The notes beneath the pieces were generated by a model. It was not told the DNA's origin, ran no database searches, and was given only the letters and a program-made list of their open reading frames with translations. Positions 34,470-42,151 of a DNA stretch of 49,042 bases are shown one piece after another. Positions within the stretch are counted from its first letter, which is position 1, and every line of letters starts with the position of its first letter. The position numbers and the translations under genes are program-made. Location of the stretch: NCBI RefSeq assembly GCF_017982655.1, contig NZ_JABXYX010000054.1, positions 1 through 49,042 on the forward strand, in the 5' to 3' direction. Source of the DNA: Brasilonema sp. CT11. GTDB lineage: Bacteria > Cyanobacteriota > Cyanobacteriia > Cyanobacteriales > Nostocaceae.

Positions 34470-34910
34470 AAAGAACAGGTCTGGGAGGAAGCACAATCCG
34501 GAACTTTTAAGTTCACTCTCAAATCTACTAATAATGATTGTGTCAGGCAATTGAGCCACACCCGTAACTAAAAATTAGGGGCTACCACCCTACTGCTTTA
34601 TTGTAGATTTACCTTTCAGTAATCATTTTTTTTGTGAAACAAAGAGCACTTGACTAACGTCCTAGTTATGTTCAAAAGGTAAAAAAAAAAGTGATTCTAG
34701 TTTTTGTAAAGTACAAAAAAAGCATCAATTTAAACACTTCTTATAAAAGCGAGTCATATGGCGGGAACTCACAAGAAACTTTGAAATTCTTTATAAATAG
34801 AAGCTCTATGTTACCATCTGGATGGTTTTAGACGCATAGTGATTGGTAGCTGAGTATCAAGTTCAAGGACTATAACGTCTCTAAGTGTGGTGGTTGAGGA
34901 GAGAATAACA
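34470..34910. other. intergenic stretch between divergent queC and the oxidoreductase gene
   Basis: About 440 nt. It holds the promoters of both genes and an A-rich tract near 34680-34690. No further gene or recognisable RNA was seen. Confidence 0.4.
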
Positions 34911-35981
34911 GTGCAGAATAGAAGTATGTCAGTGGGAGAACAAAATGGTCAAGTACAGCGCAATTATCCACGACCGATCCGCATAGGCGTGATCGGCGTG
35001 GGTAATATGGGACAGCATCACGTCCGAGTACTGAGTTCAATGAAGGACGTTGAACTTGTTGGTGTAGCAGATATAAATGTTGAACGAGGATTAGAAACAG
35101 CCAGCAAGTACAAGGTACGCTTTTTTGAAGATTATTGCGATCTCCTGCCACATGTACAGGCAGTTTGTATTGCTGTACCTACGCGTTTGCATTACGCCGT
35201 TGGAATCAACTGTCTTTTGGCCGGAATTCATGTTCTGATTGAAAAGCCAATCGCAGCCAGTATATCTGAAGCCGAATCACTCGTAAACGCTGCCGCCGAT
35301 TCTCAATGTATTCTACAAGTAGGTCATATAGAGCGGTTCAGCCCAGCATTTCAAGAATTGAGCAAGGTCTTGAAAACTGAGGAAGTGCTGGCGCTAGAGG
35401 CACATCGTACAAGTCCATATTCAAGTCGGGCAAACGATGTGTCAGTTGTTTTGGATTTAATGATTCATGACATCGACCTCCTTTTGGAATTAGCCGCAGC
35501 ACCTATAGTAAAGTTAACAGCTAGTGGTAATCGTACATTAGACTCTGGTTATTTAGATTACGTAACTGCTACTTTAGGATTTGCCAATGGTATTGTTGCT
35601 ACTGTGACTGCCAGTAAAGTGACTCACTGCAAAATCCGCCGCATTGTTGCTCATTGTAAAAACTCCTTCACTGAGGCAGATTTTCTTAGAAATGAAATTT
35701 TGGTTCATCGACACACTAACGATTATCGGCAAGCACTTTACAGACAGGATGGCGTGATTGAAAAAGTTTCTACAAGCAACACTGACAAATTAGGAGCAGA
35801 GTTAGAGCATTTTGTCAACTGCGTACGTGGAGGTAACCAACCTTCAGTTGGTGGTGAACAAGCACTCAAAGCCCTGAGATTAGCAAGCTTAATTGAGCAG
35901 ATGGCGTTAGAAGACCGTGTTTGGAACCCATTAGATTGGCAATCTGAACCAAAAGTGCAATCTTTGACACCGACTGTTTAA
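34911..35981 (+). CDS. Gfo/Idh/MocA-family NAD(P)-dependent oxidoreductase
   Basis: The 356-residue protein has an N-terminal Rossmann fold (RIGVIGVGNMGQHHVRVL, about residues 22-40) and the family lysine in HVLIEKPIAASISEAE. The substrate-side block is QVGHIERFSPAFQEL, with MIHDIDLLLEL further on. These resemble nucleotide-sugar dehydrogenases such as WlbA (UDP-GlcNAc-type 3-dehydrogenases), but the substrate cannot be assigned. The start is the GTG at 34911, with GAGGAG about 10 nt upstream; a longer GTG reading begins at 34887. No sugar biosynthesis genes lie next to it. Confidence 0.88.
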   Translation: MQNRSMSVGEQNGQVQRNYPRPIRIGVIGVGNMGQHHVRVLSSMKDVELVGVADINVERGLETASKYKVRFFEDYCDLLPHVQAVCIAVPTRLHYAVGINCLLAGIHVLIEKPIAASISEAESLVNAAADSQCILQVGHIERFSPAFQELSKVLKTEEVLALEAHRTSPYSSRANDVSVVLDLMIHDIDLLLELAAAPIVKLTASGNRTLDSGYLDYVTATLGFANGIVATVTASKVTHCKIRRIVAHCKNSFTEADFLRNEILVHRHTNDYRQALYRQDGVIEKVSTSNTDKLGAELEHFVNCVRGGNQPSVGGEQALKALRLASLIEQMALEDRVWNPLDWQSEPKVQSLTPTV

Positions 35982-36113
35982 GGGAACAAAAGACAGTTAA
36001 CAGCAGGGTACATCAATGTATAGAAAGGGAATGGGGGATCGGTTGAGTGGTGGGCGAGACAATACAATCTCGTTATCATCCACAACCTGTAACCTATACC
36101 CTTTTTTATTTAG

Positions 36114-36227
36114 ATAAAGTGTATTTTTTAACAAAAATAGTTAAAAAGTATTAAATAAAGCAAGTTTTCTGTGGTCATGACAAATTACTACAAAACTTCT
36201 GTCGCAACTTCACCGAATACACTTTAT
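36114..36227. repeat. 114-bp inverted-repeat element reaching into the dedA start
   Basis: Perfect 11-bp arms ATAAAGTGTAT (36114-36124) and ATACACTTTAT (36217-36227). An inner hairpin (TTTTTTAAC/GTTAAAAA) lies near 36124-36147. The right arm overlaps the first two bases of the dedA start codon. It resembles a MITE. Confidence 0.55.
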
Positions 36228-36840
36228 GCTTGAATGGATAACCAATACTATTAACTCTCTGGGCTACTGGGGGATAGCTGTGCTGATGTTTCTGGAAAAT
36301 GTCTTTCCCCCAATTCCTTCAGAACTGATTATGCCATTGGCGGGATTTACAGCAAGGGCAACCCCAGAAAAGCTTAATGTCATCGGCATATTTTTTGCAG
36401 GACTGCTGGGTTCGGTATTGGGGGCACTTATCTGGTACTATCCTGGTAGATTATTAGGGGAAAAGCGTTTACAGGCTTGGGCTGATAAGTACGGTAAGTG
36501 GCTGAGTATATCAAGTAAAGACATAACTAAGGCAAAGAACTGGTTTGATCAACAAGGTAGCAAAGCAGTTTTTCTTGGTCGGCTTGTACCGGGAGTACGT
36601 ACCTTAATTTCTGTACCCGCAGGCATGAGTCATATGCAGCTGCTACCATTTTTAATCTACTCAACTTTAGGCAGCGCTGTATGGGTTGGTTTGCTAACAT
36701 ACTTAGGATATGCCTTGGGTAGTCAGTATCAACTCGTGGATAAGTATCTGGCTCCTGTTTCTAAAATTGTGGCTGTAGTTCTGATCCTGGGATTTGTCGT
36801 CTGGGTGATGAAGCGTAAGCGAAAAAACAGGAGAAAGTAA
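36226..36840 (+). CDS. DedA-family membrane protein
   Basis: The 204-residue integral membrane protein of the DedA/SNARE-associated (VTT) family has the typical re-entrant region FLENVFPPIPSELIMPLAGF. The conserved Arg/Gly/Pro block is FLGRLVPGVRTLISVPAG, and several helices lead to a basic C-terminus (KRKRKNRRK). DedA proteins are linked to membrane lipid flipping (undecaprenyl phosphate and phosphatidylethanolamine flippases) and to proton-motive-force maintenance. The ATG lies at the end of an inverted-repeat element, so the promoter must be inside or upstream of that element. Confidence 0.9.
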   Translation: MLEWITNTINSLGYWGIAVLMFLENVFPPIPSELIMPLAGFTARATPEKLNVIGIFFAGLLGSVLGALIWYYPGRLLGEKRLQAWADKYGKWLSISSKDITKAKNWFDQQGSKAVFLGRLVPGVRTLISVPAGMSHMQLLPFLIYSTLGSAVWVGLLTYLGYALGSQYQLVDKYLAPVSKIVAVVLILGFVVWVMKRKRKNRRK

Positions 36841-37219
36841 AAATTATTATTTATAACTAGCGTTGGAAAAATAAGTAAGTAGATAGTTTGAATTAAATAT
36901 AAAATTTAGCGTTGACCAGAAAACCCGCATTGGTAATAAAGTAGGGAACTTTCCGGGTTCCACTAACGCTCATCGTGGAATTCATTACGGCTATTTACTT
37001 ATTCTTTAGTATAAAGGCAAATTTTTGCAACTCTGCTTGTTAGTTTTGTCATTCTATGATATTCAGTGAAACTTACGTGCCATGTTTATCGCTCAACAAC
37101 TAAGTGATTGTTTTTATATTGCTTGCTACAGTTGACGCAACAGATGTTTTCTGGTACACCCATTTCTGTAAGATGAGCATGATAACTTGTGAGAGCTAAG
37201 TAAAGTACTAGGAGCTTTT
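36841..37219. other. intergenic stretch upstream of the ParM-like gene
   Basis: About 380 nt with no coding frame. I looked for iterated repeats of a parC-like centromere site and saw none obvious. A good ribosome-binding site AGGAG lies 7 nt before the ATG at 37220. Confidence 0.4.
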
Positions 37220-38365
37220 ATGACAGACCAACCTTCCGCTGCCACTCCGATGAATGCCGCTGCTATTCCAATGAATAGAGTTTCAGCAGCGACTCCGATA
37301 AATACTGCTCCCCCTCAACCAATTGCTGGTGTTCCAGGGAAAAAGATTCTCAGTATTGATTTAGGTAGAACTTCTACAAAGACTTGTATTAGCCGCGAGT
37401 CTAATAATGTGACGTTCGTCTCCGCCAACGTGAAAGAGATGTCAATGGAACAAGTGCGTGGAGGTGTTTTTGAAGCCCGCGCGACTGATCCTTTGATGGA
37501 TCTGTGGTTGGAATATCAAGGCAATGGATACGCTGTTGGTCAATTGGCAGCAGATTTCGGAGCTAACTTAGGAGTGGGTCAATCTAAAGTCGAATCCGCA
37601 CTGATCAAAGTCTTGGCTTGCGCTGGCTACTTTAAGCTCAAAGATGAGATCTCTGTGGTACTCGGTCTGCCTTACCTTTCTCAAGAACAATTTGAGAAGG
37701 AAAAAGCACAGCTCATCAGCCAACTCAGTGGTCCTCATGTGATGAATTTTCGTGGAGAAAGCGTACCATTGAATATCAACAAGGTTTGGGTCATGCCAGA
37801 AGGCTATGGCAGCTTACTATGGTGTGAAGCTCAACCAAAGAGAGGTACAGCAATGCCCGACTTTACCAAAGTCTCTGTAGCCATTGTTGATATTGGACAT
37901 CAAACCACCGATTGTTTGATGATTGATAATTTCCGCTTTGCCCGAGGTGCGTCAAAGAGTGAAGACTTCGGTATGAGCAAGTTTTATGAACTGGTTGCTG
38001 CTGAAATTGAGGGCGCAGATAGCCAGTCTCTATCTTTAATTGCTGCAGTCAACCGAATCAAAGGCGATCGCTTCTACCGTCCCAGAGGTGCAAGCAAGCC
38101 TACCAATTTAGATGACTTTCTCCCCAATTTGATAGAAATGTTTTCTCGCGAAATCTGTAACCGCGTGCTAGCATGGCTACCAGAGCGCGTTACCGATGTG
38201 ATTCTCACCGGAGGAGGTGGAGAATTCTTCTGGGAAGATGTTCAACGCTTGCTCAAAGAAGCAAAAATTAATGCCCATTTAGCTTCGCCGTCTCGGCAAG
38301 CAAACGCTTTAGGGCAATATATTTATGGAGAGGCACAGTTATCCAACGCTCGCGCTAGAACTTAA
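37220..38365 (+). CDS. ParM/StbA-type actin-like ATPase
   Basis: The 381-residue protein has an actin-fold ATPase pattern: phosphate-1 ILSIDLGRTSTKT (about residue 45), phosphate-2 VAIVDIGHQTTDC (about residue 221), and the adenosine motif VILTGGGGEFF (about residue 326). Low-complexity Ala/Pro/Thr repeats (ATPMNAA, ATPINTA) make up the first 38 residues and are probably disordered. ParM-like proteins polymerise with ATP and segregate plasmids when joined to an adaptor bound to a DNA centromere. Here the gene is surrounded by chromosomal housekeeping genes. The next gene, 5 nt downstream, has the layout of an adaptor. MreB and FtsA are less likely, since MreB-type signatures are missing. Confidence 0.85.
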   Translation: MTDQPSAATPMNAAAIPMNRVSAATPINTAPPQPIAGVPGKKILSIDLGRTSTKTCISRESNNVTFVSANVKEMSMEQVRGGVFEARATDPLMDLWLEYQGNGYAVGQLAADFGANLGVGQSKVESALIKVLACAGYFKLKDEISVVLGLPYLSQEQFEKEKAQLISQLSGPHVMNFRGESVPLNINKVWVMPEGYGSLLWCEAQPKRGTAMPDFTKVSVAIVDIGHQTTDCLMIDNFRFARGASKSEDFGMSKFYELVAAEIEGADSQSLSLIAAVNRIKGDRFYRPRGASKPTNLDDFLPNLIEMFSREICNRVLAWLPERVTDVILTGGGGEFFWEDVQRLLKEAKINAHLASPSRQANALGQYIYGEAQLSNARART

Positions 38366-38370
38366 CACTG

Positions 38371-38898
38371 ATGTTCCAATGGTCAAAAAAAGTAGTGAAA
38401 TCCGTTACGTTTGAGCCAGGGGTGGCTGACGAAAGCTTGTTAGCTCTTGTGGAAAGTCATTTGGAGAAAGATCCCCAAAAAACTTTCAGCGACCTCTGTA
38501 AAGAAGCCTTATGGCAATCTTTGTGCGTACCGGAATCTGTACGACCAGCCCCGAAACCAGCAGCAGCAACAGCAACACAAGGGGTGGAACAAAAAATTCT
38601 GGAACAAAAAATTGCTGCACTGCAAAGTCAGATAGCTAACCTTGAGGAACGTTTTTTTGCTAAGGAAGCTAATCGGTTGGAAATGCTGGAACAGCAGCTA
38701 ATACAACTGAGCCAACAAGTGGCTCAATTGGCTATTATGCTGAACAATGTTTCCACCACTTCCCCTCCAACCCCTCAACAGGTCTCAGCCATAGAAGTAA
38801 TCAATCATACTTCTAGTCCTAATCATGCTGCTGCCACTCCTTCTCAAGAAGTTGATCCAGTTATCAGCCGTATTAGCCAGTTTCTGGATGATTTCTAA
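38371..38898 (+). CDS. probable adaptor protein of the ParM-like ATPase (RHH-like N-terminus, coiled coil)
   Basis: The 175-residue protein has a possible beta-strand (KSVTFEP) and two helices (DESLLALVESHLEKDP and TFSDLCKEALWQSLC) in the first 50 residues. The order fits a ribbon-helix-helix fold. A Pro/Ala linker, a Gln/Glu/Leu-rich coiled coil (about 70-125), a Ser/Thr/Pro-rich linker and a conserved-looking tail (DPVISRISQFLDDF) follow. Plasmid ParR proteins bind DNA with an RHH domain and ParM with their C-terminal tail. By position (5-nt gap) and layout this is a ParR-like partner. That is inference, since no sequence match to ParR is claimed. A terminator follows. Confidence 0.65.
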   Translation: MFQWSKKVVKSVTFEPGVADESLLALVESHLEKDPQKTFSDLCKEALWQSLCVPESVRPAPKPAAATATQGVEQKILEQKIAALQSQIANLEERFFAKEANRLEMLEQQLIQLSQQVAQLAIMLNNVSTTSPPTPQQVSAIEVINHTSSPNHAAATPSQEVDPVISRISQFLDDF

Positions 38899-38931
38899 GG
38901 ACATTTCAGGCTGTGAATGTGTTTGACTGCT

Positions 38932-38972
38932 ATAAAACCTCCTTAATGAGAATTCTCTTAAGGAGGTTTTAT
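38932..38972. terminator. strong bidirectional terminator
   Basis: Perfect 15-bp arms ATAAAACCTCCTTAA (38932-38946) and TTAAGGAGGTTTTAT (38958-38972), with an inner GAGAATTCTC palindrome. It lies between the convergent adaptor gene and the lamin-tail gene, whose stop codon begins 2 nt away. Confidence 0.9.
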
Positions 38973-38974
38973 AT

Positions 38975-39511
38975 TTATGAATTTTTATTGTTTTGTGTTA
39001 ACCACTTAGCAGGGCTAGTTTGTGGTGTTTGTGGCTGCTTTGAGACGGCAGTTGCTTTATCGGTTTTTTTATTACCATAGCTGAAGCTATCCACCAGATT
39101 GCCTTGTCCATCATACAGTAGCCCCACATTCCCTTTATTGTTCCAAAGTGCTCGCTTAATGCCAAAACTCAAACCCCCGGTTTCTGGGTGTATCTCATTG
39201 GTATACACTCGCAAACTTTTTCCTGGTGTCAGTAGCGTTCCTTTGGGAAAATAAAAGTTTTGCCGACCATCGTCACTATTGAGTCGCCACCCTGATAGAT
39301 CTACTTTTGCTAGTCCCTGATTGTTAATTTCAACATATTCATCTGATTCTGTCTGTTTTACGACCCCTTTATAGAAAATGTCTTTAATCACTACTCCCCG
39401 TGGACTAGTATTGACGCTAGCCTCAGCCCTAGTCGGCAAGCCTAGTACTGTTGTGAAGCACAAAACCAAAGCAACAATGGCAACAGCCATCTGTGAGAAA
39501 AGTTTTTTCAT
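38975..39511 (-). CDS. secreted lamin-tail-domain (LTD) protein
   Basis: The 178-residue protein has a signal peptide (MKKLFSQMAVAIVALVLC, then LPTRAEA, likely cleaved after AEA at about residue 31). One lamin-tail domain (about 40-140) follows: VVIKDIFYKGV, DEYVEINNQG, VDLSGWRLNSDDGRQNFYFP and GNVGLLYDGQGNLVDSFSYG. LTD modules are immunoglobulin-like and occur in bacterial surface proteins and in secreted nucleases and phosphatases. Here the domain stands alone, so a binding role is possible but unproven. The C-terminal tail is Thr/Pro/Gln-rich. Confidence 0.85.
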   Translation of the reverse strand: MKKLFSQMAVAIVALVLCFTTVLGLPTRAEASVNTSPRGVVIKDIFYKGVVKQTESDEYVEINNQGLAKVDLSGWRLNSDDGRQNFYFPKGTLLTPGKSLRVYTNEIHPETGGLSFGIKRALWNNKGNVGLLYDGQGNLVDSFSYGNKKTDKATAVSKQPQTPQTSPAKWLTQNNKNS

Positions 39512-40714: not shown

Positions 40715-42151
40715 ATGTCAGTAGCAGCTAACGTAGTCAAATTTGGTACAGACGGCTGGCGGGGCGTCATTGCCGATGAGTTCACCTTTGAGCGTGTAGC
40801 CTTAGTTGCGCCACTTGCCGCAAAAGTTTTACTTGATACATACGGAAAAACAACAGGCACCCGTACAATTATTGTCGGGCACGATCGACGGTTTATGGCA
40901 GAAGATTTTGCTCATAAAGTCGCGGATGTTGTCTGTGCTGCTGGATTTGATGTACTACTCACGGATACTTATGCCCCAACTCCAGCTTTTAGTTGGGCGG
41001 CGAAGGAACAAAATGCCTTGGGTGCACTCGTAATTACTGCGAGTCATAATCCGGGCAAATATTTGGGATTAAAAGTCAAAAGTGCTTTTGGTGGTTCTGC
41101 ACCGCCAGAAGTTACCAAGCAGATAGAAGCACTTTTATCGGACGAACTACCACCCGCATCAACTCCAGGCAAAATAGAGAAGTTCAACCCCTGGGGCAGT
41201 TATTGTCAAGCACTCGAAGGTAAAGTCAAGATTGCGAAAATCCGCGATGCTATAGCTGCAGGCAAACTCACAGTATTTGCCGATGTGATGCATGGCGCGG
41301 CTGCTGGTGGATTGGCAATGCTACTTGGCAATGAGATCAAAGAAATTAACAGCAATCGTGATCCCCTGTTTGGTGGCGGCGCACCAGAACCACTACCCAA
41401 ATACCTTTCGCATCTGTTTGAGGTGATGCAAAATCATCAAAAGACGAATCAAGGAGGTTTAGCGGTAGGGTTGGTGTTTGACGGGGACAGCGATCGCATT
41501 GCCGCTGTTGATGGAGACAGCAATTTCCTAAGTTCACAAATCTTAATCCCAATATTAATCGACCACTTAACCCTACGCCGCGATTTCAAAGGCGAAATAG
41601 TCAAAACTGTGAGTGGTTCTGACTTGATTCCTCAGGTAGCAGCACTCCACAACTTGTCAGTGTTTGAAACAGCCGTCGGTTATAAATACATTGCTGACAG
41701 AATGTTAGAAGCACAAGTTTTGTTGGGTGGCGAAGAATCGGGAGGAATTGGCTACGGAAGCCATATACCTGAACGCGATGCACTTTTATCAGCATTGTAC
41801 GTGCTAGAAGCGATCGTGGAATCTGGGCTGGATTTAGGTGATTACTATCGCCATTTACAAGAACAAACAGATTTCACCTCCGCATATGATCGCATCGATT
41901 TACCCCTCGCCAGCATGGAAGTGCGATCGCGTCTTTTACAACAACTGCAAACCCAACCTTTAACACAAATAGCTGGAAAACCAGTCATTGATTGCCAGAC
42001 AATTGATGGCTACAAATTCCGCCTAGCCGACAACAGTTGGTTAATGATTCGTTTTAGCGGTACCGAACCCGTTTTACGGTTGTACTGCGAAGCACCCACA
42101 CTTCAACAAGTACATCAAACTCTAGCTTGGGCAAAAAACTGGGCAGAGTAA
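40715..42151 (+). CDS. phosphoglucomutase/phosphomannomutase family protein
   Basis: The 478-residue alpha-D-phosphohexomutase has the phosphoserine loop in TASHNPGKYLGLK (Ser110), the metal loop VFDGDSDRIA, the sugar loop GGEESGGIGYGSHIPERD and the phosphate loop RFSGTEPVLRLYCEAP. Family enzymes interconvert hexose 1- and 6-phosphates. Whether glucose, mannose or glucosamine is the substrate cannot be read here; the GEESGG motif fits glucose/mannose types. It is upstream of rdgB on the same strand, with a hairpin-forming repeat between. Confidence 0.92.
   Translation: MSVAANVVKFGTDGWRGVIADEFTFERVALVAPLAAKVLLDTYGKTTGTRTIIVGHDRRFMAEDFAHKVADVVCAAGFDVLLTDTYAPTPAFSWAAKEQNALGALVITASHNPGKYLGLKVKSAFGGSAPPEVTKQIEALLSDELPPASTPGKIEKFNPWGSYCQALEGKVKIAKIRDAIAAGKLTVFADVMHGAAAGGLAMLLGNEIKEINSNRDPLFGGGAPEPLPKYLSHLFEVMQNHQKTNQGGLAVGLVFDGDSDRIAAVDGDSNFLSSQILIPILIDHLTLRRDFKGEIVKTVSGSDLIPQVAALHNLSVFETAVGYKYIADRMLEAQVLLGGEESGGIGYGSHIPERDALLSALYVLEAIVESGLDLGDYYRHLQEQTDFTSAYDRIDLPLASMEVRSRLLQQLQTQPLTQIAGKPVIDCQTIDGYKFRLADNSWLMIRFSGTEPVLRLYCEAPTLQQVHQTLAWAKNWAE

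What the first reader, a model, noticed from the sequence alone, without database searches (positions are those of the whole stretch)
37220..38898. Chromosomal ParM-like ATPase with an adjoining ParR-like adaptor candidate
An actin-fold ATPase with all three nucleotide motifs is followed after 5 nt by a protein with an RHH-like N-terminus, a coiled coil and a short conserved-looking C-terminal tail, ending in a strong terminator. Such pairs normally segregate plasmids. Here the neighbours are chromosomal housekeeping genes, and no replication or centromere repeats were seen. The pair could be a domesticated filament system for a chromosomal or cell-biological task.
Basis: partly seen in the sequence, partly recalled or inferred. 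Interest (0 to 1): 0.7.

Follow-up and report, generated by a model that had tools for sequence, protein, structure and literature searches.

The report
Known actin-like cell-shape gene pair

Summary
Window 37220-38365 encodes a ParM-like actin ATPase with intact nucleotide motifs. Five nt later, 38371-38898 encodes a helix-helix/coiled-coil/short-tail protein, followed by a strong hairpin. The ATPase matches NCBIfam FcmB (736 bits, cut-off 300) and the solved protein CorM (PDB 9rmi); the partner matches FcmC (220 bits, cut-off 90). In Nostoc punctiforme both genes are needed for rod shape, and FcmB membrane filaments depend on FcmC (PMC12645912).

My tests: the pair is adjacent in 56 of 56 own-family genera and 24 of 24 genera outside. 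No direct repeats lie just upstream. The RHH fold of FcmC stays inconclusive. In the own family the pair keeps one site, behind a Gfo/Idh oxidoreductase (55 of 55) and often a VTT/DedA gene (41 of 56).

Side lead outside the window: a second FcmB core is fused to a membrane/coiled-coil anchor beside an HNH-like membrane protein, where relatives carry a dynamin GTPase; some copies lie on plasmids labelled 'ParM/StbA'.

The parts
37220..38365 (+). fcmB (corM): ParM-derived actin-like ATPase, 381 aa
   Evidence: NCBIfam NF052678 FcmB 736 bits, cut-off 300; PDB 9rmi_G CorM, phmmer E 4e-215, residues 1-379 aligned; Pfam ALP_N + MreB-like_C
37220..37342 (+). N-terminal tail (residues 1-41) with three copies of an A-x-P-[MI]-N motif
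   Evidence: direct repeats D1/D2; 31 of 31 own-family loci L001-L031 start MTDQP; many FcmB model matches in families f2 and f9 begin only at model positions 12-30
37346..37381 (+). phosphate-1 motif ILSIDLGRTSTK of the ATPase
   Evidence: conserved columns in alignment A1; motif name recalled from general knowledge of actin ATPases
37880..37912 (+). phosphate-2 motif AIVDIGHQTTD
   Evidence: conserved columns in alignment A1; motif name recalled
38195..38230 (+). adenosine motif DVILTGGGGEFF
   Evidence: conserved columns in alignment A1; motif name recalled
38371..38898 (+). fcmC: ParR-like partner, 175 aa
   Evidence: NCBIfam NF052682 FcmC 220 bits, cut-off 90; adjacent to fcmB in 56 of 56 own-family genera and 24 of 24 genera outside
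38371..38526 (+). FcmC N-terminal domain: M-x-x-W plus basic stretch, V-x-F strand candidate, then two helices (ribbon-helix-helix-like pattern, fold not proven)
   Evidence: A3 (16 rows) invariant M1, V12, F14, D20, L23, F39, L42, K44, L47; Trp in the first five residues in 54 of 57 rows; helices 21-33 and 39-52 in the model
38578..38757 (+). FcmC coiled-coil helix (residues 70-129)
   Evidence: model helix H70-129, block-mean pLDDT 69-94
38854..38895 (+). FcmC C-terminal tail DPVISRISQFLDDF, candidate FcmB-binding peptide
   Evidence: 57 of 57 rows end in D/E-F preceded by D, E, Q or L; D162, P163, I165, R167, S169, D174, F175 invariant in 31 rows; helix 163-174 in the model; binding not tested
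37117..37219 (+). conserved leader just before fcmB (approximate limits), with a ribosome-binding-site-like AGGAG; likely promoter/leader region
   Evidence: denser conservation in 31 aligned upstream regions than further up; transcription start sites upstream of fcmB are reported in PMC12645912, not mapped here
38931..38973 (.). hairpin terminator, possibly shared with the convergent gene 38975-39511
   Evidence: -23.9 kcal/mol, z -8.8

Best explanation
The pair is the chromosomal fcmBC (corM plus its partner) operon of a Brasilonema-like heterocystous cyanobacterium. FcmB binds ATP and polymerises into actin-like filaments. FcmC dimerises through its coiled coil, binds FcmB, probably with its short C-terminal helix ...DPVISRISQFLDDF, and brings the filaments to the cytoplasmic membrane. 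Membrane-bound FcmB filaments wrap the cell circumference and promote rod shape, by placing lateral wall synthesis or by constriction. Shown in Nostoc punctiforme by others: need for rod shape, membrane filaments, dependence of their membrane location on FcmC, FcmB-FcmC contact in a two-hybrid test, reduced lateral wall labelling in hormogonia. Shown here: family membership by sequence, gene pairing, conserved motifs, fixed locus. Inferred: that the tail is the FcmB-binding site; that the coiled coil dimerises; that the conserved Met-x-x-Trp-basic N-terminus helps membrane contact; that this organism uses the pair in the same way.
For: NCBIfam equivalog hits far above cut-off for both genes. 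Near full-length match to solved CorM. FcmB found in 145 of 145 own-family genomes (144 over cut-off; 0 of 14 control genomes) and FcmC in 144 of 145. The one genome without FcmC, G097, also has only a weak FcmB match (E 5e-27). The pair is adjacent in 56 of 56 own-family genera and 24 of 24 others. It lies on a complete chromosome (HT-58-2) and a nearly complete genome (NIES-4073) among named relatives. Published phenotypes.
Against: No functional data exist here for this organism. In the published work the C-terminal GFP fusions were non-functional and fcmB complementation failed, so the mechanism is not fully settled. The RHH origin of FcmC was not confirmed by any profile or fold search, and hhalign of its N-terminus against proteins encoded next to ParM on two Nostocales plasmids gave nothing usable. 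The N-terminal membrane-contact idea rests on composition only: the calculated helical amphipathicity is 0.45-0.58 for the window protein but 0.15-0.23 for four others tried. Four of the 24 outside-family FcmB rows carry one internal stop (G185, G255, G299, G348), and the G006 fcmC is in two pieces, so some copies may be decaying or misassembled.
Confidence: 0.95

Rival explanations
1. It is a working type II (ParM/ParR) partition system that segregates the chromosome or a resident plasmid: FcmC binds a centromere through an RHH dimer and FcmB filaments push copies apart.
For: ParM-like ATPase plus RHH-patterned adaptor with a coiled coil and tail; NCBIfam also gives weaker, sub-cut-off ParM-type hits.
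Against: No direct-repeat family in the 420 nt upstream; fixed chromosomal site with queC, Gfo/Idh and VTT/DedA genes; no obvious nucleoid change by DAPI in the published mutants.
Confidence: 0.03
2. It is a recently inserted plasmid or prophage remnant that still carries its partition genes.
For: ParM-type ancestry and the literature's inference of an old horizontal origin.
Against: Present in nearly every own-family genome searched and at the same site in the one-per-genus set and the named loci; base composition near that of the window (46% and 44% GC against 42%); no viral contig found to encode a relative at the sensitivity used.
Confidence: 0.01
3. The functional unit is larger: the upstream VTT/DedA gene (36226-36840, undecaprenyl-phosphate-carrier-like) or the Gfo/Idh dehydrogenase (34887-35981) works with fcmBC in wall synthesis.
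For: Gfo/Idh upstream, same strand, in 55 of 55 genera with a match (56 searched); VTT/DedA between in 41 of 56; the VTT protein scores best against UptA models, though below cut-off.
Against: The divergent queC gene is also kept (71 of 80 named loci), so the upstream block looks like passive synteny; no full VTT/DedA copy was found at the locus in 15 of 56 (one of these, G039, shows a 56% match there as L145); outside the family the Gfo/Idh gene is present but elsewhere in 24 of 24.
Confidence: 0.1

Closest known systems
FcmB/FcmC of Nostoc punctiforme (Npun_R4472/R4471; NCBIfam NF052678 and NF052682)
   Same: Both proteins pass the equivalog cut-offs over nearly full length; same order, orientation and chromosomal setting as described.
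   Different: Another organism (closest named locus Brasilonema angustatum, 99%); no experiment known to me in it.
[quoted passage not shown]
   Same: Residues 1-379 align with the CorM chain at 717 bits.
   Different: The preprint was not readable here; that it is the source of the CorM name and describes the locus in Anabaena is recalled, not seen.
ParM/ParR type II plasmid partition systems
   Same: Actin-like ATPase, downstream coiled-coil adaptor with a short C-terminal helix (the ParR anatomy is recalled).
   Different: No iterated site found, chromosomal, ParM model hit far below cut-off (NF010498 58 bits against 417); the other Nostocales plasmid ParM rows listed are 23-29% identical (25 of 95 records listed).
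MreB rod system
   Same: Actin-like, membrane-associated, rod shape.
   Different: Separate lineage; published two-hybrid tests found no FcmB-MreB contact.

Membership tests
FcmB (CorM) family | Full-length match above the curated equivalog cut-off | tested here: met
   736 bits against 300, model positions 1-373 of 373
FcmB (CorM) family | Three actin-type nucleotide motifs intact | tested here: met
   conserved in 10 of 10 aligned rows
FcmB (CorM) family | Chromosomal, fcmB-fcmC order | tested here: met
   56 of 56 genera adjacent; chromosomal records among named relatives
FcmB (CorM) family | Membrane filaments and need for rod shape | not testable with these tools
   reported in N. punctiforme only
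FcmC family | Match above the equivalog cut-off | tested here: met
   220 bits against 90
FcmC family | Membrane association and binding to FcmB | not testable with these tools
   reported in N. punctiforme
Type II ParMRC partition system | Centromere-like iterated DNA sites next to the genes | tested here: not met
   0 direct-repeat families in 36841-37260; distant or degenerate sites not excluded
Type II ParMRC partition system | RHH DNA-binding fold of the adaptor | tested here: inconclusive
   helix pattern fits; no Pfam, PDB or Foldseek RHH match
Type II ParMRC partition system | Carried on a segregating replicon such as a plasmid | tested here: not met
   fixed chromosomal neighbourhood in relatives

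The most novel reading that the evidence does not exclude
The FcmB core is also a donated part. In a minority of heterocystous cyanobacteria a second FcmB core is fused to an N-terminal membrane-helix/coiled-coil domain, directly downstream of an HNH-nuclease-like membrane protein. In sister operons that slot holds a dynamin-like GTPase. Some copies lie on plasmids or near defence genes (SspB; a PD-Lambda-4 homologue) and are annotated as plasmid-partition ParM. The fused actin could be a membrane-stress sensor, or a decoy of the host's own shape filament, in a defence module.
Probability: 0.4. Interest if true: 0.65.

Novelty: already known. Interest (0 to 1): 0.25.

Why it matters
The pair is a clean case of a plasmid-segregation filament turned into a cell-shape cytoskeleton, and it shows that a blind read can recognise such a case. 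What is added here is breadth: pairing in every one of 80 genera checked, over nine families by the search tool's labels; a conserved FcmC head and tail with a free middle; and a fixed site in the heterocystous family. The side lead, an FcmB core sitting in the place of a dynamin in an HNH-type membrane operon, would be new if it proves functional, and it suggests that some 'ParM/StbA' labels on cyanobacterial plasmids mislead.

Tried and rejected
RHH proof for FcmC: Pfam scan of 16 N-termini, PDB profile search, Foldseek of the monomer model and hhalign against two plasmid ParM-neighbour proteins all gave nothing usable. Viral relatives: 76 pattern matches, none a relative. Functional coupling with the upstream Gfo/Idh and VTT/DedA genes: downgraded because queC is kept as well and the linkage is absent outside the family. 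Text searches: 'CorMR' with 'cyanobacteria' gave no paper; some searches gave PMC12645912 as the only paper on this pair that I recognised in the listings; a search for a dynamin/HNH/anti-phage/actin-like module gave one unrelated paper. An amphipathic-helix calculation for the FcmC N-terminus was weak. Rows dropped: L069, L080 and L082 before the FcmC counts (L069 because the wrong ORF had been picked, the other two because they are not FcmC), L083 never gave a row. A3 holds the window plus 15 of the 19 outside-family N-termini printed. In the fused-FcmB motif table two of seven rows (G028, G130) were not parsed. PADLOC was run on five neighbours of the side-lead modules; two hit (L036, L166) and three did not (another L166 gene, L164, L053). 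The module proteins themselves had only weak PADLOC matches (best E 9e-5) and the dynamin fusion of L045 none.

Full report
Observation. Two ORFs on the + strand at 37220-38365 (381 aa) and 38371-38898 (175 aa) are 5 nt apart. The first matches Pfam ALP_N and MreB-like_C above cut-off. The second has no Pfam family above cut-off, yet its head and tail are strongly conserved among 31 relatives while the middle varies. A hairpin at 38931-38973 folds at -23.9 kcal/mol, z -8.8; it lies between fcmC and the convergent gene at 38975-39511. No direct-repeat family was found in 36841-37260, only two widely spaced inverted pairs.

Identity. NCBIfam release 20 names both: FcmB, 736 bits (cut-off 300), and FcmC, 220 bits (cut-off 90). 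The only strong PDB sequence match is CorM, 9rmi_G, 717 bits over residues 1-379. The published account is Nguyen et al., mSphere 2025, PMC12645912; I read the abstract, Results and Discussion and searched the text for neighbour-gene words (DedA, UptA, dynamin, ribbon, neighbor, 0 each). It reports loss of rod shape in fcmB and fcmC deletions, membrane-bound FcmB filaments round the cell that need FcmC, FcmB-FcmC contact in a bacterial two-hybrid test, reduced lateral wall labelling in hormogonia, no obvious nucleoid change by DAPI, and absence from unicellular strains among 126 species. A second work, Springstein et al. 2025 (bioRxiv 2025.06.27.661541), was seen only as a reference with its title and could not be read.

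Distribution. In 145 genomes of the own family, FcmB matched in 145 (144 over cut-off) and FcmC in 144; the exception G097 has no FcmC and only a weak FcmB (E 5e-27). In 291 genomes drawn from the order, own family included, 95 had FcmB at E <= 1e-40. One genome per genus was used for gene order: fcmC directly follows fcmB in 56 of 56 own-family genera (the G006 fcmC is in two pieces). In 24 further genera from eight other families FcmC lies downstream of FcmB on the same strand within about 415 nt in 24 of 24 (read from the rows). FcmC is over cut-off in 21 of these 24, and the FcmC model also rang, below cut-off, in 1 of 14 control genomes. Four of the 24 FcmB rows have one internal stop.

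Locus. In the own family the Gfo/Idh-type oxidoreductase (34887-35981) lies upstream on the same strand within 1.6 kb in 55 of 55 genera that have a match, of 56 searched. The VTT/DedA gene (36226-36840) lies between in 41 of 56. The phosphoglucomutase-type gene (40715-42151) lies within 4 kb downstream in 18 of 55, a lower bound since 20 are on other contigs. Among 80 named loci, which partly come from the same genomes, the figures are fcmC 80, Gfo/Idh 77, queC 71, VTT/DedA 64, pgm 38 (loci cut by contig ends included). Because queC, a tRNA-modification gene by name, is also kept, I read the upstream block as an old fixed site and not as proof of shared function. Outside the family the Gfo/Idh gene is present in 24 of 24 but not near fcmB: in six it is on the same contig at more than 150 kb, in the rest on another contig. 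The pair, and not its neighbours, is the conserved unit. The closest named locus is Brasilonema angustatum, 99%.

Anatomy and mechanism. FcmB keeps the phosphate-1, phosphate-2 and adenosine motifs (names recalled). Its N-terminal tail carries three A-x-P-[MI]-N repeats and begins MTDQP in 31 of 31 own-family loci taken for this; many matches in families f2 and f9 start only at model positions 12-30. FcmC: in 57 rows (three dropped, see Tried and rejected) Trp occurs within the first five residues in 54, at least two Lys/Arg at positions 5-13 in 57, and a D/E-F end in 57. The single-chain model (pLDDT 64, pTM 0.26) has two short helices, a long helix and a C-terminal helix. This is the order expected of a ParR-like adaptor: head, dimerising coiled coil, filament-binding tail. 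That ParR binds ParM through a C-terminal helix is recalled, not tested here. My inference is that the tail binds FcmB and that the Trp/basic N-terminus helps membrane contact; neither is shown, and the amphipathicity calculation was weak. RHH homology was not found by three searches, so the RHH label stays inconclusive.

Side lead. Some own-family genomes carry a second FcmB in ORFs of about 510-530 aa. These begin with what looks by eye like a membrane helix and a coiled coil, about 150 aa together. That anchor domain occurs in 21 of 145 genomes, none of them the window's genome. In the 17 with a strong match (E < 1e-40) an HNH-like protein of about 336 aa lies 23-60 nt upstream in 17 of 17. 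The HNH assignment rests on weak Pfam matches, E 0.11, and at least three of the 17 upstream genes are split, partial or interrupted (G015, G087, G121). In 7 of these 17 the anchor is joined to an FcmB core (five full; two truncated, G015 and G087). In three the partner is a dynamin by Pfam, Dynamin_N E 1e-17 to 9e-17: fused in L045 and L053, a separate gene in L047. Four more (G142, G138, G076, G097) were judged dynamin-like by ORF length or by eye, and three (G045, G019, G050) were not settled. G024 carries a longer-anchor FcmB fusion with no HNH match in that genome, and G408 a further fusion.

A tree of 68 FcmB cores puts the seven full fused rows among own-family FcmBs, with 3 changes of state and at least 2 forced by well-supported branches. 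The G057 fusion groups with that genome's own FcmB (100/98); the other six do not group with their own genome's FcmB, and several sit on an open fork. In 8 rows read for the phosphate-2 motif the first Asp is kept in 8 and the last Asp is replaced in 4. One search listed four PLSDB plasmid records at 60-80% identity; three were opened. Two carry HNH plus anchor-FcmB (L164, L166), one anchor-FcmB without an HNH gene seen (L165); all three are annotated as ParM/StbA. L166 lies beside an SspB homologue (PADLOC E 2e-77) and L036 beside a PD-Lambda-4_A homologue (E 7e-80), but three of five neighbours tested had no PADLOC hit. A defence role is a guess from neighbours. The literature searches that I ran (and the text search) showed no description; the library is partial.

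Verdict. The finding is real and correctly interpreted, and it is already known. Its interest as given is low. The captured FcmB core is the part worth a separate look.

Noticed in passing
L032:2857-5428 (+), L036:4376-6945 (-), L164:2069-4625, L166:1971-4544: Two-gene module: HNH-like membrane protein plus membrane-anchor/coiled-coil domain fused to an FcmB core; the plasmid copies are annotated ParM/StbA.
   Followed up: partly
L045:2996-6776 (-), L053:2412-6201 (-), L047:946-4811 (-): Sister modules with a Dynamin_N GTPase in the slot that FcmB occupies elsewhere.
   Followed up: partly
window 34887-36840: Gfo/Idh oxidoreductase and VTT/DedA (UptA-like, below cut-off) genes keep a fixed place upstream of fcmBC in the own family; the Gfo/Idh gene is elsewhere in 24 of 24 outside genera.
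   Followed up: yes
window 38975-39511 (-): Small protein with a signal-peptide-like start (by eye) and a Lamin Tail Domain (Pfam LTD E 6e-20) convergent with fcmC; found near fcmBC in 3 of 80 named loci.
   Followed up: partly
L066 (G244), L068 (G190): FcmC variants of 442 and 326 aa; the 442-aa one shows repeated matches to the coiled-coil part of the FcmC model.
   Followed up: no
L082, L083 (f15 genomes G257, G378): A more distant FcmB relative (about 44% identity) in addition to the normal FcmB, in ORFs of about 460 aa.
   Followed up: no
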